Assembly (NCBI GenBank): GCA_035601835.1
Contig: DATNNM010000011.1
Location: 372,001-436,000 of the forward strand
Source of the DNA: Candidatus Tumulicola sp.
Lineage (GTDB): Bacteria; Vulcanimicrobiota; Vulcanimicrobiia; Eremiobacterales; Eremiobacteraceae
Reading direction: 5' to 3'
Length of the DNA stretch: 64,000 nucleotides
In this document: positions 39,378 to 51,127 of the stretch, in pieces
Numbering within the stretch: the first letter of the stretch is position 1
Layout of the letters: every line of letters begins with the position of its first letter
Made by a program: the position numbers and the translations under genes
Notes under the pieces: generated by a model
Told to the model about the DNA's origin: nothing
The model's input: only the letters and a program-made list of their open reading frames with translations
Databases searched by the model: none

Positions 39378-39510
39378 GTCTACATTATCGGCGGACCGGA
39401 GCCAGTCGCCAAGCAGGAAGATATGATATGAAGGACTGGTCCGGCGCATCCGTTCGGCTCATCCGTTGGGCGGCTAGGCGGGTCCGAATCGCCGTGCTAT
39501 GATTGCGCTG

Positions 39511-40677
39511 ATGCGTTACTCCACTGCGCTCCTCGCCGCGCTCGCGTGCCTCACGCTCTGCACGCCCGCGATCGCTTATGCCTCCTCGCCGGCGCCGGCT
39601 GCGACGCCAACGCCCGCGGCAACGCCGACAGCCACGCCAACGCCGTCCTCGTCGCTCGGCTACATCGTTCTTTTGGGGAGCTTCCACACCACCGGCGTCA
39701 ACGCCACGGGCGCGCTCGATCAACCGAGCGGCGTCGATCTTGCCACGCGCACCGACTTCAACGATTTCTTTCTCAACGCCAGCGCCGGAACCGGTAAGCT
39801 ACGAGCCTCGGCGCTGATCGGCGAGTATTCGTTTCCGACGCTAGGCTTCGCGCTCAATCCGGCGCTCCAACCCGGCGCGAACACAAGGCTGTTCGGCGTC
39901 GTGCCGATAGGCTCGCTGCAATACTCGTTCAACGACCGGTGGAGCGTCGCAGCCGGAAAGTTCGGCGCCCTTTTGGGTCAAGAATCGCCCTTCACGTTTC
40001 AAAACGTGAACGTGCAACGCGGCTTGGCGTGGTCACTCGAGCCGACGATCAGCCGGGGCGTGCACGTGTCGTACGCTCAAGGCGCATGGAGCGGCACGCT
40101 CGAGTTTAACGACGCCTACTATTCGGGTCACGATAGGGCATGGGAAGCGTTATTCGGCTATGCGCCTACGTCGAACACCAATATCCAGTTCGCGGCAATC
40201 GTTCCCAAAGCCAACGCTAGTTCCAATCCTACTGTGACCGTCGGCAACAAGGTCGAATACGATTTGTTCCCAACGCAGACGATCGGCAAGCTGCAGCTAC
40301 AGCCTTACTTGTTGTGGGTGCGTTCGCCCGCTTCTACCGCCCTTGGATACACGCACGACGAGACCGCGTTCGCGTCCGTCTTCATGGGCACGTATTCGTT
40401 CAACTCGGGTTACTCCGTTGCTGCCCGCTGGGAGCAGGTCAACAATCACAGCGCCACCACCGATACGAGTCCAAACGCCGATCTCGTGGGCTTCGGTCCG
40501 GGAAGCGGCGGGACGACGTTCACCCTCACACCGACCTATCGCCACGGCATCTCGTTCGTCCGCCTCGAGTACTCGCATATGACCGTTCAACGCGCCACGC
40601 CGGGGCTGGCCTTCGGCCCGAGCGGCACCGGCACCACGCAGAACCGGATCGGTCTTGAGCTCGGAGTGCAGCGCTGA
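39511..40677 (+). CDS. Outer-membrane porin, OmpL/beta-barrel porin-2 type
   Basis: A 388-residue protein. A signal peptide (MRYSTALLAALACLTLCTPAIA) is followed by a Pro/Ala/Thr linker and about 330 residues of alternating beta strands with aromatic girdles (GYIVLLGSFHTTGV, RASALIGEYSFPTLGF, WSVAAGKFGALLGQESPF, GVHVSYAQGAWSGTLEFNDAYYSG, YSVAARWEQVNNHS). This matches the bbp2/OmpL-like porin family. The stop overlaps the tiny gene before kdpF (TGATG), so the porin is the first gene of the kdp transcript. It may be a potassium entry pore in the outer membrane; inference from position. Confidence 0.82.
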   Translation: MRYSTALLAALACLTLCTPAIAYASSPAPAATPTPAATPTATPTPSSSLGYIVLLGSFHTTGVNATGALDQPSGVDLATRTDFNDFFLNASAGTGKLRASALIGEYSFPTLGFALNPALQPGANTRLFGVVPIGSLQYSFNDRWSVAAGKFGALLGQESPFTFQNVNVQRGLAWSLEPTISRGVHVSYAQGAWSGTLEFNDAYYSGHDRAWEALFGYAPTSNTNIQFAAIVPKANASSNPTVTVGNKVEYDLFPTQTIGKLQLQPYLLWVRSPASTALGYTHDETAFASVFMGTYSFNSGYSVAARWEQVNNHSATTDTSPNADLVGFGPGSGGTTFTLTPTYRHGISFVRLEYSHMTVQRATPGLAFGPSGTGTTQNRIGLELGVQR

Positions 40678-40766
40678 TGTTGATCCTGGAATTGTCGGTC
40701 CTGGCGTTGACGCTGGCGTCGTTTTGGCTTTTCGACACCTATGCCAAAGGCTGCGAGAGGCTGTAA
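40677..40766 (+). CDS. 29-residue single-pass membrane peptide upstream of kdpF
   Basis: A tiny ORF that begins in the porin stop and ends 1 bp before the kdpF ATG. It has one hydrophobic helix (ILELSVLALTLASFWLFD) and a cytosolic tail AKGCERL. Short peptides with one helix and a G-C-x-R-L tail are, as I recall, found before kdpF in several phyla, so it is likely a real Kdp accessory subunit. No function is known to me. Confidence 0.6.
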   Translation: MLILELSVLALTLASFWLFDTYAKGCERL

Positions 40767-40767
40767 C

Positions 40768-40854
40768 ATGGCTGAACAGATCACCGGCTTGGTGCTTTCC
40801 ATACTCGCGCTCGTGTACCTCGCGTACGCGATGCTGCGCCCCGAAAAGTTCTAG
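40768..40854 (+). CDS. kdpF: K+-transporting ATPase subunit F
   Basis: A 28-residue single-helix peptide, MAEQITGLVLSILALVYLAY followed by AMLRPEKF. The L-x-Y-L-x-Y-A-x-L-x-P-E-x-F ending is the KdpF hallmark. It stabilises the KdpABC complex. It is 10 bp before kdpA. Confidence 0.92.
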   Translation: MAEQITGLVLSILALVYLAYAMLRPEKF

Positions 40855-40864
40855 GAGAGCGCAC

Positions 40865-42583
40865 GTGACCGCAATCGGCTGGCTGCAGACCCTTGTGTTC
40901 GTGGCGATCGTCGTCGCCATCACCAAGCCGCTCGGCGCCTACATGGCGCGCGTCTTCCAAGGCGGCCGCACCTTCCTCAGTCCGGTGCTTGCGCCGATCG
41001 AGGGACTTATCTACCGGCTTTGCCGCATCGATCCCAAAAAGGAGATGTCCGCAGTCTCGTACCTGGTGGCGACGTTCGCGTTCAGCGCCGTCGGACTGAT
41101 CTATCTCTACGTCCTGCTCCGGACGCAGAAATGGCTCACGGGCTTCTCGTGGCTGCCGCTCAACCCGCAAGGCTTTGACAACCTCACGCCCGATAATGCC
41201 TGGAACGTGGCGGTCAGCTTCACGACGAACACCAACTGGCAGTTCTACTCGGGCGAGAGCACGATGAGTTACTTCTCGCAGATGGCCGGCCTGGCATGGC
41301 ACAATTTCGTCTCTGCCGGCGTGGGCATCGCCATCGCGATCGCGGTGATTCGCGGCGTGACGCGCACCGATCTGAAGACCGTCGGCAACTTCTGGGTGGA
41401 CCTGACCCGCTCTATCCTCTACGTGCTGCTCCCGATCAGCGTCGCGGGCGCGCTGCTGCTCGTCTGGCAAGGGGTGCCGCAGAACTTCCATCCGTATCAG
41501 GACATCGTCTCGATCGAAGGCTTCAAACAGTCGATCACGGGCGGGCCGATGGCGTCGCAGGAGGTCATCAAGGAACTTGGCACCAACGGCGGCGGCTTCG
41601 TCAACGCCAACTCCGCGTCTCCGAACGAGAATCCGACGCCGTTCAGCAATCTCTTCGAGATGCTGCTCATCTTCTCGATCGGCGCCGGGCTCACTTACAC
41701 GTATGGCCGCTACGCCCGCGACCAGCGGCAGGGCTGGGCGCTTTTCGCCGCCATGGCGATCCTTTTCAGCGTCGGCTTCACGGCGGCGTACGCCGCCGAG
41801 GCCGCGGGCAACCCGATCGTGCACGCGCTAGGGCTGTCCGGCGGCAACATGGAGGGCAAGGAGTGCCGCTTCGGCGTGCCGGCATCCGCGCTCTTCGCGA
41901 CGGTGACCACCGACACGTCGTGCGGTGCCGTGAATTCCATGCACGATTCGTTCACCGCGCTCGGCGGCCTCGTGCCGTTGGCGGACATGCAGCTCGGCGA
42001 GGTCGTGTTAGGCGGCGTCGGCACGGGTTTGTACGGCATGATCCTCTTCGTCGTGCTGACGGTCTTCATCGCCGGACTCATGGTCGGGCGTACCCCGGAA
42101 TACCTCGGCAAGAAGATCGAGAAAAAAGAGGTGCAGCTCGCCATGCTCGGGGCGCTCGTGCTTCCGTTCTTCGCACTGGTGCCGACGGCGATTTCCGTAC
42201 TGCTGCCGATCGGTACCGCGACGCTCAACAACGGCAGCGCGCACGGGTTCTCCGAACTGCTCTACGGTTTCACATCCACAACGGAGAACAACGGCAGCGC
42301 GTTTGCCGGGCTCGGCGGCAACCTTTATTTCAACATCGTGATGGGCATCGTGATGATCTGCGGGCGCTTCCTGTTCCTGATACCCGCGGTGATGCTGGCC
42401 GGCTCGCTAGCGGGTAAACCCAGCGTGCCCACAACGGCAGGCACGTTCAGCACGCGCTCGCCGATCTTCGTGTTCCTTCTGATCGGCGTCATCGTCATCG
42501 TCGGCGCACTCACGTTCTTCCCCGCCGATGCGCTTGGGCCGATCGTCGAGCACTTGCTGATGCTACAGGGGAAGACGTTCTAG
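40865..42583 (+). CDS. kdpA: K+-transporting ATPase subunit A
   Basis: A 572-residue channel-like subunit that selects and moves K+. It shows the four pore-loop regions: [58 protein letters not shown] and [19 protein letters not shown]. About ten membrane segments. It begins with GTG 40865; the same frame is open upstream across kdpF but that part is not KdpA. kdpB starts 2 bp after its stop. Confidence 0.96.
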
Positions 42584-42585
42584 CC

Positions 42586-44646
42586 ATGATCACGCAGCGT
42601 CGCATCGAACGCCGCCCGAAAGCCCGCTCGCTCTTCGACCGGGAGATCATCCTGCGGGCCATCCGCGATTCGTTCGTGAAACTGGATCCGCGCTGGCAGG
42701 CGCGCAATCCGGTGATGTTCATCGTGGAGGTCGGCGCGCTCGCGGTGCTGATATTCTGGTTGCGCGACCTGTTCTTCGCCGGCGGCAAGAACTCAGGTTT
42801 CGATTTCGCGATTTCCGCGTGGCTGTGGTTCACCGTGCTCTTCGCCAATTTCGCCGAGGCGGTGGCGGAGGGCCGCGGCAAGGCACAGGCCGACTTTCTA
42901 CGGCGCACCAAGACCGAAACCCAGGCGCGGCGCGTCGTCGGCGGCCGCGAGGAGCCGGTCAACGCGACCGAATTGCGCAAGGGCGACGTGGTCCGCGTGG
43001 GTGCGGGCGGACTCATCCCCGGCGACGGCGACGTGATCGAGGGCGCAGCTTCGGTCGACGAATCCGCCATCACCGGTGAATCCGCGCCCGTCATCCGCGA
43101 AGCCGGCGGCGACCGCAGCGCCGTCACCGGCGGCACGCGCGTGCTCTCCGACCACATCCTCGTGCGCATCTCCTCGAATCCGGGCGACACGTTCCTCGAC
43201 CGCATGATCGCGCTGGTGGAAGGCGCCAGCCGCCAGAAGACGCCCAACGAGATCGCGCTTTCGATCCTGCTCGCCGGATTGACTATCGTGTTCCTGTTCG
43301 CAGTCGTCACGCTTGGCCCGTTCTCGATCTACGCCGGCACGGTGCAATCCGTGACCGTACTGATCGCGTTGCTCGTGTGCCTCATCCCGACGACGATCGG
43401 CGGGCTGCTCTCGGCCATCGGCATCGCGGGCATGGACCGCGTGCTGCAGCGAAACGTGCTCGCGATGAGCGGGCGCGCCGTCGAAGCGGCGGGCGACGTC
43501 GATACCCTGCTGCTCGACAAGACTGGCACCATCACGCTCGGCAACCGGCGCGCGACTGAGATCGTGCTCGCGCCGGGCGTGGATCCCAAAGTCGCGTATC
43601 GAGCGGCATATCTGTCTTCGCTGGCGGACGAAACGCCCGAAGGCAAGTCGATCGTGACGCTGGCGGAAGTCAACGGCGTGACCCTGGGCGGACCGGCGCC
43701 GGGTGGCTCGACGTTCGTGCCGTTCTCCGCGTACACGCGCATGAGCGGGGTGGACGCTTCCGATGGCACCGCGATCCGCAAAGGCGCCCCCGATGCCGTG
43801 AGGACCTGGGTGCGCGCACGCGGTGGCGAGGGAGCGGACGTGCTCGCAGCCGACGTCGAGCGCATCGCGCGCTCCGGCGGCACACCGCTGCTGCTGGCTC
43901 AGGATCGCGCCGTTTTGGGCGCCATCCATCTCAAAGACATCCTCAAGCCCGCCATGCGCGAGCGCTTCGACCGCCTGCGCGCCATGGGCATCAGCACGGT
44001 CATGATCACCGGCGACAACCCGCTCACCGCGAACACCATCGCACGCGAGGCGGGCGTGGATGATTTCCTCGCCGAGGCGACGCCGGAGAACAAGATGCAG
44101 CTTATCAAGCGCGAGCAGGCGTCGGGGCGGCTTGTCGCCATGACCGGCGACGGCACCAACGATGCGCCCGCGCTCGCGCAAGCGGACGTCGGGGTCGCGA
44201 TGAACACCGGCACGCAAGCCGCAAAAGAAGCCGCCAACATGGTGGACCTCGATTCCGACCCGACCAAACTGATCGAGATCGTCGAGATCGGCAAGCAGCT
44301 GCTCATGACCCGCGGCGCGCTGACGACGTTCTCCATCGCCAACGACGTCGCCAAGTATTTCGCGATCCTGCCGGCGATGTTCGCGACCGCGTACCCGGCG
44401 ATGGAGGCGCTCAACGTCATGCGCCTCACCACGTCGTCGAGCGCGATCCTCTCGGCCGTGATCTTCAACGCGCTCATCATCGTCGCGTTGATCCCGCTCG
44501 CGCTGCGCGGCATAGCGTACCGCCCGCGCGGCGCCGATCTGGTGCTGCGCGACAACGTCTTCATCTACGGCCTGGGCGGCATCATCATCCCGTTCGCCGG
44601 CATCAAGCTCATCGACATGCTGCTTGCCGCGTTCCACCTGACGTAG
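42586..44646 (+). CDS. kdpB: K+-transporting P-type ATPase subunit B
   Basis: A 686-residue P-type ATPase that powers the Kdp pump. Actuator TGES in [11 protein letters not shown], phosphorylation motif [11 protein letters not shown] (Asp about 311), hinge motif [27 protein letters not shown] and [21 protein letters not shown]. The membrane segment [14 protein letters not shown] is KdpB-specific. The regulatory Ser in the TGES loop (TGESAPV) is present, so inhibition by phosphorylation, known in E. coli, is possible. Length normal. Confidence 0.97.
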
Positions 44647-44659
44647 AGGAAACGACTCC

Positions 44660-45268
44660 ATGCAACAGCCGGTCGATACGCCCACCAACGACAGCACGCT
44701 GCGTCACATCCCGACGGCGCTGCTCTACACGATTGTGTCCGTGATCGCGCTCGGCATCATCTACCCGCTGCTGATGACGCTCGTCGCATCTGCGCTGTTC
44801 CCGCGTCAGGCGAACGGCTCGTTGGTCACGGCCCACGCCAGCGTCGTCGGTTCGGACATCATCGGTCAGTTGTGGACCAAGCCGCAATACTTCCACGGCC
44901 GGCCGTCGGCGGCGGGGAAAGGCTACGATCCGACCTCGACCGGCGGCACCAACTTCGGTCCGACGTCGAAGAAGCTGATCGATCAGACGCGCGCGACGAT
45001 CGCCGCCCTCAAAAAAGAGAACCCCTATTCCCATGGGCCGGTGCCCATGGACCTTGTCACTTCAAGCGCGAGCGGCATCGACCCCGACATCTCGCCCGAG
45101 GGCGCCTACTACCAGGCGCCCCGCATAGCCAAGGCTCGCGCGATGCCGATCGGCTCAGTCAACGCGCTCATCGCCGAGCACATACGGCCGCGCGAGCTCG
45201 GCTTTCTCGGCGAAGCGCGCGTGAACGTGTTGGAACTGAATCTCGCCCTCGATAGCAAAGGCCGATAG
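44660..45268 (+). CDS. kdpC: K+-transporting ATPase subunit C
   Basis: A 202-residue subunit: an N-terminal membrane helix (ALLYTIVSVIALGIIYPLLMTLVA), then a periplasmic/cytosolic-edge domain with FPRQANGSLV, FHGRPSAAGKGYDPTSTGGTNFGPTS, PMDLVTSSASGIDPDISPEGAYYQAPRIAKAR and LGFLGEARVNVLELNLAL. All family motifs are present. It ends the kdp pump genes; the ammonium transporter follows 36 bp later. Confidence 0.96.
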   Translation: MQQPVDTPTNDSTLRHIPTALLYTIVSVIALGIIYPLLMTLVASALFPRQANGSLVTAHASVVGSDIIGQLWTKPQYFHGRPSAAGKGYDPTSTGGTNFGPTSKKLIDQTRATIAALKKENPYSHGPVPMDLVTSSASGIDPDISPEGAYYQAPRIAKARAMPIGSVNALIAEHIRPRELGFLGEARVNVLELNLALDSKGR

Positions 45269-45304: not shown

Positions 45305-46549
45305 ATGATCGCCACGGTGATTCCGTTCAACGTCGGCAATACAGCGTTCATGCTCATCTGCGCGAGCCTCGTCATGCTCATGACGCCGGGGCTCGCGTTT
45401 TTCTACGGCGGCCTCGTGCAGCGCAAGAACGTGCTGGCCATCATGATCCAGAGCTTCGTGTCGCTCGGGTGGACGACCGTGCTGTGGTTCATCTGCGGCT
45501 ATTCGATGAGTTTCGGACCGGATTGGCACGGCATCATCGGCAACCCGACCACGTATGCATTCCTGCGAGGGGTCACGCTGCAGACGATGTTCACGGGCAA
45601 CGACGCGGGCATCCCGCTCGTCGTGCACATCGCGTATCAGATGATGTTCGCCATCATCACGCCGGCGCTGATCACGGGCGCATTCGCCAACCGAGTCACG
45701 TTCAAGGCGTATTTCCTCTTCCTCACGGCCTGGCTCATCCTCGTGTACTTCCCGTTCGTGCACATGTTGTGGAGCCCGGATGGCTTATTCGCCAAATGGG
45801 GCGCGCTCGATTTCGCCGGGGGCATCGTGGTGCACGCATCGGCAGGCTTCGCCGCACTCGCATCGGTGTTGTACGTCGGACGCCGAGCCGTCATCGACAA
45901 CAGGCCGCACAACGTGCCGCTGATCGCGCTCGGCACGGGCCTGCTTTGGTTCGGCTGGTACGGGTTCAACGCCGGATCCGAGCTGCGCGTGGACCCCGTG
46001 ACGGCTGCGGCTTTCCTCAACACCGACCTCGCCGCTTCGTTCGCGGCAGTGACGTGGCTGCTCGTCGAATGGGCGCGCGGCAGGCAGCCGAAGTTCGTCG
46101 GGCTGCTCACCGGCGCCGTCGCAGGTCTCGCGACGATCACGCCCGCTGCCGGCTACGTTTCGCCGACCACCGCCGTGATCATCGGCGTTCTTGCGGGATC
46201 GGTCTGCTACTACGCCGTGGCGCTGAAGAACCAACTGCGTTGGGACGACGCGCTCGACGTGTGGGGCGTGCACGGCGTCGGCGGTTTCCTCGGCATCACG
46301 CTGCTCGGCGTTTTCGCCTCCAAGGCGTGGAACCCGGCCGGAGCAGATGGCCTGCTGCTCGGCGGGACCTCGTTCTTCATCAAGCAGATCACGGCGGCAA
46401 CGGTGTGCAGTGCGTGGGCGTTCACCTTCACCTACGCCATGCTGTGGCTGATCAACCTGGTCACGCGCACGAAGGTCGATCCGGCGGCCGAAGAGCGCGG
46501 GCTCGATGTCGAGCTCCACGGCGAGGAGGCCTATCCGCTGGGGGTTTGA
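45305..46549 (+). CDS. amtB: Ammonium transporter AmtB
   Basis: A 414-residue channel for NH3/NH4+ with 11 membrane segments. Family markers: LMTPGLAFFYGGLVQRKN, GADF-type segment ALDFAGGIVVHASAGFAAL (pore His), and WDDALDVWGVHGVGGFLGI (second pore His), with the Phe gate in the TM3 region. No glnK/glnB gene is adjacent, which is unusual for amtB. It is placed between the kdp pump and the kdp sensor genes, so it may be expressed with them. Confidence 0.93.
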   Translation: MIATVIPFNVGNTAFMLICASLVMLMTPGLAFFYGGLVQRKNVLAIMIQSFVSLGWTTVLWFICGYSMSFGPDWHGIIGNPTTYAFLRGVTLQTMFTGNDAGIPLVVHIAYQMMFAIITPALITGAFANRVTFKAYFLFLTAWLILVYFPFVHMLWSPDGLFAKWGALDFAGGIVVHASAGFAALASVLYVGRRAVIDNRPHNVPLIALGTGLLWFGWYGFNAGSELRVDPVTAAAFLNTDLAASFAAVTWLLVEWARGRQPKFVGLLTGAVAGLATITPAAGYVSPTTAVIIGVLAGSVCYYAVALKNQLRWDDALDVWGVHGVGGFLGITLLGVFASKAWNPAGADGLLLGGTSFFIKQITAATVCSAWAFTFTYAMLWLINLVTRTKVDPAAEERGLDVELHGEEAYPLGV

Positions 46550-46772: not shown

Positions 46773-48899
46773 CTATCGTCGCGTTAAAACCAGCAACTCG
46801 CGCGCGCCCGCATCGAGCACTCGCAGCGCGAATGCATCGCGCTGCGGCCAGCGAGGCTTTCGCAACGTGGCTGCCAAGGCGACGGTGGTCTCGGGCACCA
46901 TGCGCGCCAGCTCGATGATCCGGCGTGCCGGGTTGGGCGTGATCTCCTCGATCCATTCCGCGCAATGCTTGTATGCTTCCGCTCGCAGCGCTTCGGTCAG
47001 CTCCTTCGAGCACGCATCGCGCGGCTCCAGGATCATGGCCACCGCGAAATCGGCGCCGAGCCGCGCTGCGAATTGCGAGCAGCGCAAGATCAAAGCGACA
47101 TCCTGCTCGCGCGGCCCGGCGCATAACAGCAAGCGCTCGAAGGGCGCTCTCGGGCGCTCGCGCTTGCGCGCCCGCATCGCCTCGCGCAGCGCGAGTTCGC
47201 GCAGGCTCGCCAGATTGTCGAGCGTGAAAAAGCTGGAGAGCGCGCGCTCGATGCGATCGGGCGGATAGATCTTGCCCTCGCGCAAGCGTGTCCGCAACGT
47301 TTGCGGCGAGACGTCGATCAGGATCACCTCGTCGGCGAGCGCGACGATGCCGTCCGGCAGCGTCTCGCGGACCTGCGTCTGCGTCATCCGGAGCACCGTG
47401 TCGTTCAAGGCCTCGAGATGCTGGATGTTCAGCGTGGTGATGACGTCGATGCCTACACGCAAGATCGCCAGCACGTCCTCGTAGCGCTTCCTTGCGAAGG
47501 CTCCGGGCGCATTCGTGTGCGCCAGCTCATCGATGAGGACGACCTCAGGCCGCCGCGCCAACACCGCGTCGCGATCGAGCTCTTCGTAGCGGACTCCGTT
47601 CTTTTCGATGACGCGGCGAGGCAAGACCTCGAGGTCGCCGATCATGGCGGCCGTCTCGGCCCGCCCGTGCGTCTCGATGAAGCCCGCGACGACGTCCACG
47701 CCTTCGGCGCGCAATTGGTTGCCGCGATCGAGCATAGCGTACGTCTTGCCTGCGCCGGCGACTGCGCCGAGATACACGACGAGCTTGCCGTAACCGATCC
47801 GAAAGCGGTCGCCGGCCGTGGTGTCGAGCGGGTACGTGCGAAACGGACGATCGCTCAGATACGTCTGTGCTGGATCGATGATGAAGACGTCGCGATCCAG
47901 ACGATGGTTGACGAGCCGGCGCGCTCCTTTTCCATTGGGCACGATGACGAGGCTCGCGCGCAGATCGCTTAAGTCCAGCTTGCCGATGTCGAAGGGGTCG
48001 CTGAGCAGTTCCGCTCCGGTTCGCTCTGCCGCGTCCTGCAGCGCGGTCATGTCGACGGCGCCGGCCGCCCGAACTTCCAGCAGTAGATCGAGTGCGCGCG
48101 CGACGGTCGCGGAGCGCTCCACATACGACTCGACCGGAATGCCCGGGGGCACGAACGCGACCGCGGTCGACACGCGCTCCGCCGATACGTGCGGAATCGT
48201 CACGATATCCACGGTATGCAAGAGCAACTCGCGCAGACCGTAGAGCGTGCGTTCGGAGAACACGTTGCTCAACGCGGCATCGACGTCGGTCGGGCGGACC
48301 ACTTTCCCCGAGCGCAAGCGGCTACGCAGAAGCTGAGGCGAGACGTCCAGCGCGACGACCTCGTCTGCGGCGCGCAAGAACCGATCCGGCACGAGCGAGC
48401 GCAACGGGTGACCGATCAATCGCTCGGCCGCGGGTGCGACACTTTCGAGATGCGCGATGTTGAAAGCGCACAGAACGGAGACGCCTGCGTCGCGCAGCGC
48501 GAGCGCCTCCTCCCAACGCGTGCGATAGCGCGTGCCGGGCAGGTTTTCGTGGGCCACTTCGTCGATGGCAAGAGCCTGTGGTTTGCGCGCGAGCGCCGCA
48601 TCGAAGTCGAAATCGGTGAACGTCTGTCCATTTCGTTCGACGACCAGCGGGGGGATCTGCGGGATGTCGCGAGCGAGCGCCTCGAGATCCGGACGGCCCT
48701 TGGTCTCGATCCAGCCGATGACCGCATCGCGTCCGGCGGCGCGCATCCGCTGAAGCTCTTCGAGCAGACGCCGCGTCTTGCCGGCGCCAGGAGCCGCCGC
48801 CAAGAAAACCACCAGCCGAGCCCGTTCGCCGTATTCAGCGAGCAGCGCCTCAGCGTCCGGTCTGTCCAGTTCGCGTTTCACGTCACCGGCTTCTAGCAT
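46773..48899 (-). CDS. Tandem KdpD sensor protein (two KdpD N-domains, no kinase)
   Basis: A 708-residue soluble protein with a duplicated KdpD_N plus USP-like unit. Unit 1 (about 28-345): P-loop AAAPGAGKTRRLL, IETKGRPDLEAL, then a diverged AIDEVAHENLPGTRYRTRWEE. Unit 2 (about 372-705): LGAVAGAGKTYAML, GFIETHGRAETAAM, LIDELAHTNAPGAFARKRYEDV, VITTLNIQHLEALND, the standard KdpD motifs. Each unit ends in an alpha/beta region like the USP domain that binds c-di-AMP in some KdpDs. No membrane helices, HisKA or HATPase follow. It is transcribed away from the histidine kinase gene at 48951. Start 48899 or an ATG at 48941. Confidence 0.88.
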   Translation of the reverse strand: MLEAGDVKRELDRPDAEALLAEYGERARLVVFLAAAPGAGKTRRLLEELQRMRAAGRDAVIGWIETKGRPDLEALARDIPQIPPLVVERNGQTFTDFDFDAALARKPQALAIDEVAHENLPGTRYRTRWEEALALRDAGVSVLCAFNIAHLESVAPAAERLIGHPLRSLVPDRFLRAADEVVALDVSPQLLRSRLRSGKVVRPTDVDAALSNVFSERTLYGLRELLLHTVDIVTIPHVSAERVSTAVAFVPPGIPVESYVERSATVARALDLLLEVRAAGAVDMTALQDAAERTGAELLSDPFDIGKLDLSDLRASLVIVPNGKGARRLVNHRLDRDVFIIDPAQTYLSDRPFRTYPLDTTAGDRFRIGYGKLVVYLGAVAGAGKTYAMLDRGNQLRAEGVDVVAGFIETHGRAETAAMIGDLEVLPRRVIEKNGVRYEELDRDAVLARRPEVVLIDELAHTNAPGAFARKRYEDVLAILRVGIDVITTLNIQHLEALNDTVLRMTQTQVRETLPDGIVALADEVILIDVSPQTLRTRLREGKIYPPDRIERALSSFFTLDNLASLRELALREAMRARKRERPRAPFERLLLCAGPREQDVALILRCSQFAARLGADFAVAMILEPRDACSKELTEALRAEAYKHCAEWIEEITPNPARRIIELARMVPETTVALAATLRKPRWPQRDAFALRVLDAGARELLVLTRR

Positions 48900-48950
48900 T
48901 CTCGCGGCGCGGCCGCAGGGAGCGCAACGCATGGCCACCAAGGGCCTGCC

Positions 48951-50504
48951 GTGCTGCCGGCCCTGTGCTATGCGATTTTATTCGCAGTCTTCGTTCTCGA
49001 CCTTTTCACGCCACAGCTCTTCGTCGCGGCGATCTTGAGCAACGTGCCGATCGCGCTGAGCAGCTTGGCGCTGCGCGGCCGCCTGACCATCGGCTTGATC
49101 GTCGCCGCCGAGGCGGCAAACGCCGTCGCCGGGTATGTCAACGGCATCCAAGCCGGCGGCCGGTTCGATGCCATCGCCGTCGGCGATCGCGTTTTGCTGG
49201 CTGCTTCGTTCCTGCTCGTGGGCTACATGACCCTCAAGACGCAGGAACTCGCGCGCACCGCAGGCCTCGCGGACGCGCGCGCCGAGCAGGCGCAACGCGA
49301 ACGCAGTCTGCGCCTGGCGCTCGACCGCGTGCGCGCAAGCCTCAGCGTTGAACTCGTGCTGCGCGCCGTGGCGCGCGAAGGTCTCGTGCTCTTCGACGCC
49401 GAGCGCTCGATGCTCGTGGTGGATTCGCCCGCGCCCGATGCAACGCGCTATGTGGCCCGCGCGGGCGAGCAGGAGGTGTCGGTACAGCAACAGCCGTTGC
49501 CCGCCGAGGTCCGGTCGCTCTTGGCGCGCGCATGGGACGGCGCCGGAGCTCTGGGAGAAGAAAGCATAGACACGGTCGCGCGGTATGCGCTGGAAGCGCT
49601 CGAGTCGAGGTTCGCGCTCGTAGCGCCGCTGCGCCTGGACGACCGCGACGTCCGCCTGCTGCTCCTCCGCAGCAGTAAAGCATGGGCTCGTGACGAGGTG
49701 CGTCTGTTGCAGTCGTTCGCGGACCAATCAGCCATCGCCGTCGCTCAGGCCAAACTCTTCGAGCACGCCGCTGAACAGTCTCAACAGATAGGCGCGCAGC
49801 ACCGATCACTGCTCGAGAGGAGCGATGTGATCCGCGATCTCGTGTACGCGCTGGCGCACGATCTGCGGACGCCGCTGGCCGCCGCCGACGTCACCATGCA
49901 GCAGGCGAAAGCCGGGGCATACGGAGCGCTGCCCGATGCATACCGCGAGGTGCTCGATACGACGCTGCGCTCGAACCAGGACCTTCAGCGCATGGTCGAG
50001 ACGCTGCTGATGGTGGCGAAGTACGAATCCGGCGAGGCGTCAGCGGTGCGCGCGCCGGTCGACCTCGCGGAGATCGCGCGGCAGGTGCGCGCCGAGCTCG
50101 AGGCGGGCGCTCGCGCGCGCGGCGTCGCGCTCGCCGTCGAGGGCGATCCGGCGATGGTCTTGGGCGATGCGGTCGAGCTGCGACGCGCGTCTATCAACTT
50201 GGTCGGCAACGCGATAGCGGCGACCGCCTCGGGAGGACACGTGCGCATCAGGACCATCACCAACGGCAAGACGGCGCGCTTTGAAGTAGAGGATGACGGC
50301 TTCGGCGTGTCGCCGGAACAGCGGCCGTTGCTGTTCCAGCGCTTCGGCGGGGGAAGACCCCCGCGCGGGGGCGGCACGGGGCTCGGGCTTTACATCGTAC
50401 GCCGGATCGCCGAAAAACATGACGGCGCCGTCGGCTTTGAGCCGCGCGAACCAGGCAGCCGTTTCAGCTTCTCGCTGCCGCGCGCTCCGGACCGCGGCGC
50501 ATGA
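48951..50504 (+). CDS. Sensor histidine kinase (membrane, GAF), likely the kinase half of a split KdpD system
   Basis: A 517-residue kinase. Residues 1-95 have three or four membrane segments (ALCYAILFAVFVLDLF, LFVAAILSNVPIALSSLAL, LLAASFLLVGYM), as in the KdpD DUF4118 region. A helical linker and GAF domain (about 115-265) follow, then HisKA with VYALAHDLRTPLAAADV (phospho-His), and HATPase motifs NLVGNAIAATA, EVEDDGFGVS, GGGTGLGLYIVRRIAEKHDG. It starts with GTG 48951 behind AAGGG. Its gene diverges from the tandem KdpD gene by 51 bp and overlaps the regulator gene (ATGA). Membership of the Kdp pathway is inferred from position. Confidence 0.85.
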   Translation: MLPALCYAILFAVFVLDLFTPQLFVAAILSNVPIALSSLALRGRLTIGLIVAAEAANAVAGYVNGIQAGGRFDAIAVGDRVLLAASFLLVGYMTLKTQELARTAGLADARAEQAQRERSLRLALDRVRASLSVELVLRAVAREGLVLFDAERSMLVVDSPAPDATRYVARAGEQEVSVQQQPLPAEVRSLLARAWDGAGALGEESIDTVARYALEALESRFALVAPLRLDDRDVRLLLLRSSKAWARDEVRLLQSFADQSAIAVAQAKLFEHAAEQSQQIGAQHRSLLERSDVIRDLVYALAHDLRTPLAAADVTMQQAKAGAYGALPDAYREVLDTTLRSNQDLQRMVETLLMVAKYESGEASAVRAPVDLAEIARQVRAELEAGARARGVALAVEGDPAMVLGDAVELRRASINLVGNAIAATASGGHVRIRTITNGKTARFEVEDDGFGVSPEQRPLLFQRFGGGRPPRGGGTGLGLYIVRRIAEKHDGAVGFEPREPGSRFSFSLPRAPDRGA

Positions 50505-51127
50505 TCCGAGCGGTCATCGTCGAGGATCACGCGCTCGTACGCACCGGCCTGCGCACAAGCCTGACATCGGCCGGCATCGATGTCGTAGCCGAAGCGGCAG
50601 ACGGTCCCTCGGGTCTTGAAGCCGTCACCCGCGAGCGTCCGGATGTCGCCGTGATCGACATCGGCTTGCCCGGTTTTGACGGCATCGAATTGACCCAACG
50701 CATCCGCGCGCAGTCGCCCGCGACCCACGTGGTCATCGTGACGATGCTCGACATGGACCACGAGGTCATCGCAGCGCTCGCCGCCGGAGCCGATGCGTAT
50801 TGCTTGAAGAGCGCAGAACCCGAACGCCTCGTGGAGGCGGTCCGCATCGCCGCCGAAGGCGGCGCATATTTCGATCCGCGCATCGCCCACGTCGCCCTTG
50901 CGCGGTTCTCACCGCGCGAAGCCGACCCTGCGGCTTCGCCGCTGACCCCGCGCGAAACCGGCATTTTGAAATTGATCGCGGACGGCGTCGGCAATCAAGA
51001 GATCGCGCGGCAGCTCAATATCGGTTTGGGCACGGTCAAGGGCCACGTGCGCGACATCTTGGCGAAGCTCTCCGCCGCCGACCGCACGCACGCTGCCGTG
51101 ACGGCTCTTCGCCGCGGCTATATCTGA
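50501..51127 (+). CDS. NarL/LuxR-type response regulator
   Basis: A 208-residue regulator. Receiver domain (about 1-120): acidic pair in VIVEDHALVRTGL, phospho-acceptor Asp in VAVIDIGLPGFDG, Thr in VIVTMLD, Lys in YCLKSAEP. The C-terminal LuxR helix-turn-helix (about 142-205): LTPRETGILKLIADGVGNQEIARQLNIGLGTVKGHVRDIL. It is coupled to the histidine kinase. In standard Kdp systems the regulator KdpE is an OmpR-type winged-helix protein, so this would be a replacement if it controls kdp. Confidence 0.9.
   Translation: MIRAVIVEDHALVRTGLRTSLTSAGIDVVAEAADGPSGLEAVTRERPDVAVIDIGLPGFDGIELTQRIRAQSPATHVVIVTMLDMDHEVIAALAAGADAYCLKSAEPERLVEAVRIAAEGGAYFDPRIAHVALARFSPREADPAASPLTPRETGILKLIADGVGNQEIARQLNIGLGTVKGHVRDILAKLSAADRTHAAVTALRRGYI

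What the first reader, a model, noticed from the sequence alone, without database searches (positions are those of the whole stretch)
46773..50504. KdpD split into a tandem sensor protein and a separate kinase
The KdpD N-domain plus USP-like unit is duplicated in one 708-residue soluble protein with no kinase. A membrane histidine kinase with GAF lies divergently beside it. Unit 2 keeps the standard motifs; unit 1 has lost the TN-x-PG-x-x-K-R motif but keeps the P-loop. A heterodimer-like sensor within a single chain, talking to a separate kinase, would be a new arrangement.
Basis: partly seen in the sequence, partly recalled or inferred. Interest (0 to 1): 0.7.

Follow-up and report, generated by a model that had tools for sequence, protein, structure and literature searches.

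The report
Doubled soluble KdpD-type potassium-pump kinase
A class of uncultured soil bacteria carries a doubled version of the small protein that other bacteria use to switch off their emergency potassium pump; the separate sensor kinase beside it is an already known arrangement, so the doubling is the new part.

Summary
Window 46773-48899(-) encodes a 708-aa soluble protein with two KdpD N-domains, each followed by a USP-like domain, and no histidine kinase. A TM-GAF histidine kinase and a NarL-type response regulator lie divergently beside it. The genome has no conventional KdpD. The tandem is old and fixed: 61 distinct tandem proteins across one Vulcanimicrobiota (Eremiobacterota) class, unit 1 and unit 2 each one clade, next to kdpABC and the HK/RR pair. 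The split itself is not new: Deinococcus has a single-unit KdpD-N plus a separate HK/RR, and these HK/RR are its relatives (RR 52% to the experimentally tested D. radiodurans kdp regulator). KdpD N-domains are also not just sensors: in E. coli and D. geothermalis they are serine kinases that shut KdpB off. Best reading: unit 2 is that kinase (all catalytic residues kept); unit 1 keeps the ATP-site residues in 61/61 with class-specific changes, probably a built-in regulatory partner. The HK/RR controls transcription, supported by a conserved kdp operator that changes together with the RR recognition helix. c-di-AMP control is unlikely here (no diadenylate cyclase found). New variant of a known kind.

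The parts
46773..48899 (-). tandem KdpD-N/USP protein, 708 aa from ATG 48899 (ORF open up to TTG 48941)
48201..48818 (-). unit 1 KdpD-N domain; Walker A PGAGKT and Walker B DE kept, adenine-site W39 replaced by R
   Evidence: Pfam; residue table; AF2
47865..48173 (-). unit 1 USP-like domain, divergent; fold from the model, not from sequence
   Evidence: AF2; Pfam Usp matches in only 6 of 53 members; mean pairwise identity 38%
47172..47792 (-). unit 2 KdpD-N domain with all serine-kinase residues (GKT-Y, DE, R190)
46776..47147 (-). unit 2 USP-like domain; lacks the Staphylococcus c-di-AMP motif
48951..50504 (+). histidine kinase: 4 TM helices, GAF, HisKA, HATPase; relative of the Deinococcus radiodurans kdp sensor kinase
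50501..51127 (+). NarL/LuxR-type response regulator, 4-bp overlap with the HK; 52% identical to the D. radiodurans kdp response regulator
39450..39470 (+). 21-bp inverted repeat CCGTTCGGCTCATCCGTTGGG, proposed operator of the response regulator
39498..39503 (+). putative -10 box TATGAT, 27 nt after the operator
39511..40677 (+). outer-membrane/porin-like gene at the head of the kdp operon (ORF listed from 39499)
40768..40854 (+). kdpF-like small ORF, 28 aa (another 29-aa membrane ORF precedes it at 40677-40766)
   Evidence: sequence
40865..42583 (+). kdpA
42586..44646 (+). kdpB, 63% identical to E. coli KdpB; TGES at residues 163-166, Ser166 corresponding to E. coli Ser162
44660..45268 (+). 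kdpC
45305..46549 (+). ammonium transporter (Amt) between kdpC and the tandem gene; not part of the conserved cassette

Best explanation
This is a Deinococcus-type split Kdp control system in which the soluble KdpD-N serine kinase has been duplicated inside one chain. Low K+: the TM/GAF histidine kinase phosphorylates the NarL-type regulator, which binds the 21-bp operator just upstream of the kdp promoter and turns on porin-kdpFABC(-amt) (inferred from relatives, operator conservation and co-variation). K+ restored: unit 2 of the tandem protein binds ATP and phosphorylates KdpB on the TGES serine (Ser166), stopping pumps already in the membrane (inferred from conserved catalytic residues and the demonstrated activity of E. 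coli and D. geothermalis KdpD-N). Unit 1 keeps the ATP-binding and Walker B residues but has a changed adenine pocket and class-specific substitutions, so it most likely serves as a fixed regulatory or docking partner of unit 2, an intrachain pseudo-dimer (inferred, weakest step). The USP-like domains carry the input; in this genome the ligand is probably not c-di-AMP.
For: Two KdpD domains, no kinase domain, confident fold. Unit 2 keeps G36 K37 T38, D109 E110, R190 in 60/60 and an aromatic at 39, as in single-unit KdpDs; unit 1 keeps G36 K37 T38 D109 E110 R190 in 61/61. Those residues were shown by mutation to be needed for KdpB phosphorylation in E. coli (PMC11018627). KdpB keeps TGES. Tandem and KdpA co-occur in the class: 80 both, 9 KdpD only, 6 KdpA only, 22 neither, Fisher p about 1e-11 (not corrected for relatedness). 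Unit 1 is one clade (100/100), unit 2 one clade (99/95, with two contig-edge fragments inside it). HK/RR adjacent in 35/38 loci. RR 52% and HK 44% (catalytic part) identical to D. radiodurans DR_B0081/DR_B0082, whose RR binds the kdp promoter and is required for kdp induction (PMC5716572). Operator unique in the genome, conserved and at fixed distance from the -10 in 20 aligned promoters, and changing together with the RR recognition helix in two clades.
Against: No biochemistry. The tandem gene is convergent to kdpC, not co-transcribed with the pump as the single-unit KdpD-N is in Deinococcus. The role of unit 1 is not shown: its catalytic residues argue it could be active itself. The arrangement of the two units in the model is uncertain (pTM 0.65). 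The RR-operator link rests on only two clade-level co-changes, and no matching operator was found in D. radiodurans.
Confidence: 0.6

Rival explanations
1. One reading: the tandem protein is a heterodimer-like sensor that signals to the separate histidine kinase and so sets kdp transcription.
For: Divergent adjacency conserved in 35/38 loci. In E. coli KdpD the N-domain lies in the same chain as the HK and its ATP binding has been linked to phosphatase control (reported in PMC11018627).
Against: The N-domain has a demonstrated separate job, KdpB phosphorylation. The HK has its own TM and GAF domains. Deinococcus keeps HK and KdpD-N in separate operons.
Confidence: 0.15
2. Both units are active serine kinases, unit 1 with a different target or a different nucleotide preference.
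For: All mapped catalytic residues of unit 1 are invariant (GKT, D109, E110, R190 in 61/61), with unit-1-specific invariant changes such as A40R and H63K. In the two independent tandems elsewhere unit 1 has instead lost E110.
Against: The adenine-stacking aromatic at 39 is R or H in 57/61; W39A/R190A nearly abolished activity in E. coli (PMC11018627). Unit 1 evolves faster than unit 2 (61% against 69% mean identity, 24 against 46 invariant columns).
Confidence: 0.2
3. The tandem is a c-di-AMP-gated KdpB kinase like D. geothermalis KdpD, with two USP receptors for dose response.
For: D. geothermalis KdpD is stimulated by c-di-AMP (PMC11018627). 131 of 149 genomes of the phylum encode a diadenylate cyclase.
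Against: No DAC domain in this genome (97.9% complete) nor in other near-complete tandem carriers G001, G006, G008, G049. Tandem and DAC are not associated (p=0.48). USP domains are the least conserved parts and none of 170 tandem units has the Staphylococcus motif; that motif test is weak, since D. radiodurans KdpD-N lacks it too.
Confidence: 0.1

Closest known systems
Deinococcus split Kdp system (D. radiodurans kdpBAC-kdpD-N with divergent SK DR_B0082 / RR DR_B0081; D. geothermalis KdpD)
   Same: Soluble KdpD-N/USP chain without HK; separate 4-TM HK and NarL-type RR, divergent from the Kdp gene cluster; RR 52% and HK catalytic part 44% identical
   Different: KdpD-N there is one 365-aa unit in the kdp operon; here it is two units in one chain, convergent to kdpC and divergent from HK/RR. 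DAC-dependent control shown in D. geothermalis; no DAC found here
NCBIfam NF038185, KdpD-like non-kinase potassium sensor
   Same: KdpD-N plus USP without kinase; both units match
   Different: Model covers one unit; the tandem scores 474 bits, below the 550 cut-off
E. coli KdpD (tandem serine-histidine kinase)
   Same: KdpD-N with the same Walker A/B and R190 residues
   Different: One chain with TM, GAF and HK; one N-domain; partner is OmpR-type KdpE, here a NarL-type RR
S. aureus KdpD USP domain (7ji4)
   Same: USP-like fold (TM-score 0.73 by target)
   Different: c-di-AMP motif (A/G/C)XSXSX2N absent in all tandem units

Membership tests
KdpD N-domain atypical serine kinase (PF02702 / KdpD-Usp type) | PF02702 domain above gathering score | tested here: met
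   two stretches, 487 bits against 26.1
KdpD N-domain atypical serine kinase (PF02702 / KdpD-Usp type) | Walker A G-X5-GKT, Walker B D109/E110, adenine pair W39/R190 | tested here: met
   unit 2: all kept, with Y for W39 as in the single-unit KdpDs sampled; unit 1: GKT, DE, R190 kept but position 39 is R/H/Y and the first glycine is mostly A
KdpD N-domain atypical serine kinase (PF02702 / KdpD-Usp type) | Phosphorylates KdpB on the TGES serine | not testable with these tools
   substrate motif present, KdpB Ser166
KdpD N-domain atypical serine kinase (PF02702 / KdpD-Usp type) | USP domain after the KdpD domain | tested here: met
   by model and fold search; by Pfam sequence only in 6 of 53 members
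Conventional KdpD histidine kinase | TM, GAF, HisKA, HATPase in the same chain | tested here: not met
   no other PF02702 in the genome
NF038185 KdpD_non_kinase | Score above 550 bits | tested here: not met
   474.4 bits, two stretches
Deinococcus-type split Kdp two-component pair | HK and NarL-type RR genes overlapping, beside kdp and KdpD-N, related to DR_B0082/DR_B0081 | tested here: met
Deinococcus-type split Kdp two-component pair | RR binds the kdp promoter and is needed for induction | tested here: inconclusive
   conserved operator co-varying with the RR helix; no binding assay possible
c-di-AMP-gated short KdpD | Diadenylate cyclase in the genome | tested here: not met
   no PF02457 match in G000

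The most novel reading that the evidence does not exclude
An intrachain heterodimeric serine kinase: unit 1 is a specialised nucleotide-binding regulator (or second kinase with its own target) that gates unit 2, giving a class of bacteria a c-di-AMP-independent two-input switch for shutting down the K+ pump. KdpD-N tandems with a degenerate unit 1 also appear to have arisen independently elsewhere.
Probability: 0.3. Interest if true: 0.65.

Novelty: new variant of a known kind. Interest (0 to 1): 0.47.

Why it matters
KdpD-N was only recently shown to be a serine kinase that stops the Kdp pump, and how its activity is gated is open. A natural single-chain pair, with one conventional and one altered but conserved ATP site, soluble and free of membrane sensors, in some genomes without c-di-AMP synthesis, is a direct handle on that question. 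The conserved operator with matching RR changes also gives a testable DNA target for the Deinococcus-type kdp regulators.

Tried and rejected
Rfam scan of 39-53 kb for a c-di-AMP (ydaO) or other riboswitch: none. KdpD-type TM domain (DUF4118) in the HK: no Pfam match in 36 members; the profile-profile match to KdpD covers mainly linker-GAF-kinase. Conventional KdpD elsewhere in the genome: none. A clear KdpE: five OmpR-type regulators at 36-43% identity to E. coli KdpE, none singled out. c-di-AMP motif scan: negative in all, but not decisive because the D. radiodurans KdpD-N also lacks it. Sequence profile search of the unit 2 USP against the PDB found only weak matches. The Eremiobacterota-type operator is not present at the D. 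radiodurans kdp promoter.

Full report
What is there. The ORF at 46773-48941(-) has two PF02702 domains and no histidine kinase domain. From the ATG at 48899 it is 708 aa. The NCBI model KdpD_non_kinase also matches twice, below its cut-off because the model describes a single unit. AlphaFold2 on a 53-member alignment gives mean pLDDT 86.6 with the order KdpD-N, USP-like, KdpD-N, USP-like. Foldseek returns the Pseudomonas KdpD N-domain (2r8r, TM-score 0.94) and USP structures including the S. aureus KdpD USP 7ji4. Divergently beside it lie a histidine kinase (four TM helices, GAF, HisKA, HATPase) and, overlapping it by 4 bp, a NarL/LuxR-type response regulator. Upstream run a porin-like gene, a small ORF, kdpF, kdpA, kdpB, kdpC and amt.

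How widespread. In its own genome there is no other PF02702. In its family 9 of 14 genomes carry exactly two domains in one open frame. In the phylum 105 of 149 genomes have a match above the cut-off; most of the class carries two copies about 1 kb apart. From fetched loci I collected 61 distinct tandem proteins. The relatives are titled Candidatus Eremiobacterota (Vulcanimicrobiota in the current taxonomy). Tandem and KdpA co-occur (80 both, 9 and 6 singly, 22 neither), the A-only genomes being incomplete. The tandem is convergent with kdpC or kdpB in 31 of 38 loci, and divergent from HK/RR in 35 of 38 (33 by script plus L087 and L088, whose long open frames failed the script's boundary rule).

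Origin. In a tree of KdpD-N domains unit 1 is one clade (100/100) on a long stem and unit 2 one clade (99/95), apart from two contig-edge fragments that fall in it. One duplication before the class radiated is the simplest reading. Tandems in Neobacillus pocheonensis (L098, between kdpC and a full KdpD/KdpE) and in G131 of another class (L027) do not group with these units, although their long branches make placement unsure; in both, unit 1 has lost the Walker B glutamate (G or N at E110). So unit 1 is the altered one each time, but only in this class are its catalytic residues all preserved.

Residues. Mapped on E. coli KdpD (L131), unit 2 keeps GKT, D109, E110, R190 and an aromatic at 39 in every member. 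Unit 1 keeps GKT, D109, E110, H113, R124, R190 in 61 of 61, but W39 is R/H/Y (48/9/4), A40 is always R, H63 always K, L179 always A. Mean pairwise identity is 61% in unit 1, 69% in unit 2, and 38% and 44% in the USP-like domains.

What it does. Silberberg et al. 2024 (PMC11018627) showed that the KdpD N-domain is an atypical serine kinase that phosphorylates KdpB Ser162 and stops the pump, that D. geothermalis has a soluble KdpD/Usp version stimulated by c-di-AMP, and that separate ASK and HK chains occur in several phyla. They do not mention a tandem in the main text. The KdpB here keeps TGES, with Ser166 in place of Ser162. I therefore read unit 2 as the KdpB kinase. Unit 1 is the open question.

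The kinase next door. The best plasmid-collection match of the response regulator is the Deinococcus group, including the D. radiodurans kdp regulator at 52% identity; the HK's best matches are likewise the Deinococcus/Allomeiothermus kinases. In D. radiodurans pMP1 the HK/RR pair is divergent from kdpBAC-kdpD-N, and its RR binds the kdp promoter and is required for induction by K+ limitation (PMC5716572). So the 'separate kinase' is a known arrangement, and the partner is not KdpE-like.

Operator. Upstream of the kdp operon head, 24 of 32 tandem-class promoters have a 21-bp site with at least 16 matches to CCGAACGGATCATCCGTTCGG. The best shuffled score reached 16 in 4 of those 32 with 20 shuffles each. 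In the comparison group of 26 the four sites at 16 or more are three class members listed under duplicate loci (L006, L008, L010) plus L022 from another class of the phylum; none of the kdp promoters from other phyla reaches 16. The window copy is unique in the genome with up to 3 mismatches. In 20 aligned promoters a TAnnnT box follows at the same 27-nt distance (my reading of the printed rows, chosen for having the site). RRs with the helix KGH[IV]R go with an inner TC[AG]TCC-type half; KSHIRD (L051, L053, L054, L056) with TAGGCC or TAGGTC; KGH[IV]AD (L084, L088, L095) with TCGGCC. Each change is one clade, so these are two co-changes, not seven.

c-di-AMP. No diadenylate cyclase domain was found in this genome or in several near-complete tandem carriers, although 131 of 149 genomes of the phylum have one. 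The USP motif known from Staphylococcus (PMC8214093) is missing in all tandem units, but also in D. radiodurans KdpD-N, so the genome evidence counts more than the motif.

Verdict. Observation right; the claimed novelty of the split is not, the tandem unit is. I found no paper describing a tandem KdpD-N, within an open-access library only. Functional steps are inferred by homology and conservation.

Noticed in passing
window 39450-39503: 21-bp inverted repeat at the kdp operon head, followed at a fixed 27 nt by a -10-like TATGAT; conserved through the class and co-varying with the NarL-type RR recognition helix.
   Followed up: yes
window 39498-39513: The ATG used in many relatives falls 7-9 nt after the -10 box, so the kdp operon mRNA looks leaderless; the listed porin start 39499 lies inside the -10, the likelier start is 39511.
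   Followed up: partly
window 39511-40677: A porin-like outer-membrane gene heads the kdp operon in this and about a dozen related loci, suggesting K+ entry through the outer membrane is co-regulated with the pump.
   Followed up: partly
window 45305-46549: An ammonium transporter gene sits between kdpC and the tandem gene; Amt was also near kdp in L081 but in few other loci.
   Followed up: no
L098 9845-12286: Neobacillus pocheonensis has a KdpD-N tandem of apparently separate origin between kdpC and a full-length kdpD plus kdpE; its unit 1 has N in place of the Walker B glutamate.
   Followed up: partly
L027, L142: Genome G131 of another class of the phylum has two KdpD-N tandem proteins, in L027 with G in place of the Walker B glutamate in unit 1.
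   Followed up: partly
L141 8290-8445: The D. radiodurans kdpB/sensor kinase intergenic region holds a perfect inverted repeat ATTGGCCA-cc-TGGCCAAT, outside the 38-bp fragment tested in PMC5716572.
   Followed up: no
L080, L097: Two assemblies titled Rhodospirillales carry tandem KdpD-N genes that fall inside the Vulcanimicrobiota clade; probably misassigned metagenome bins.
   Followed up: no
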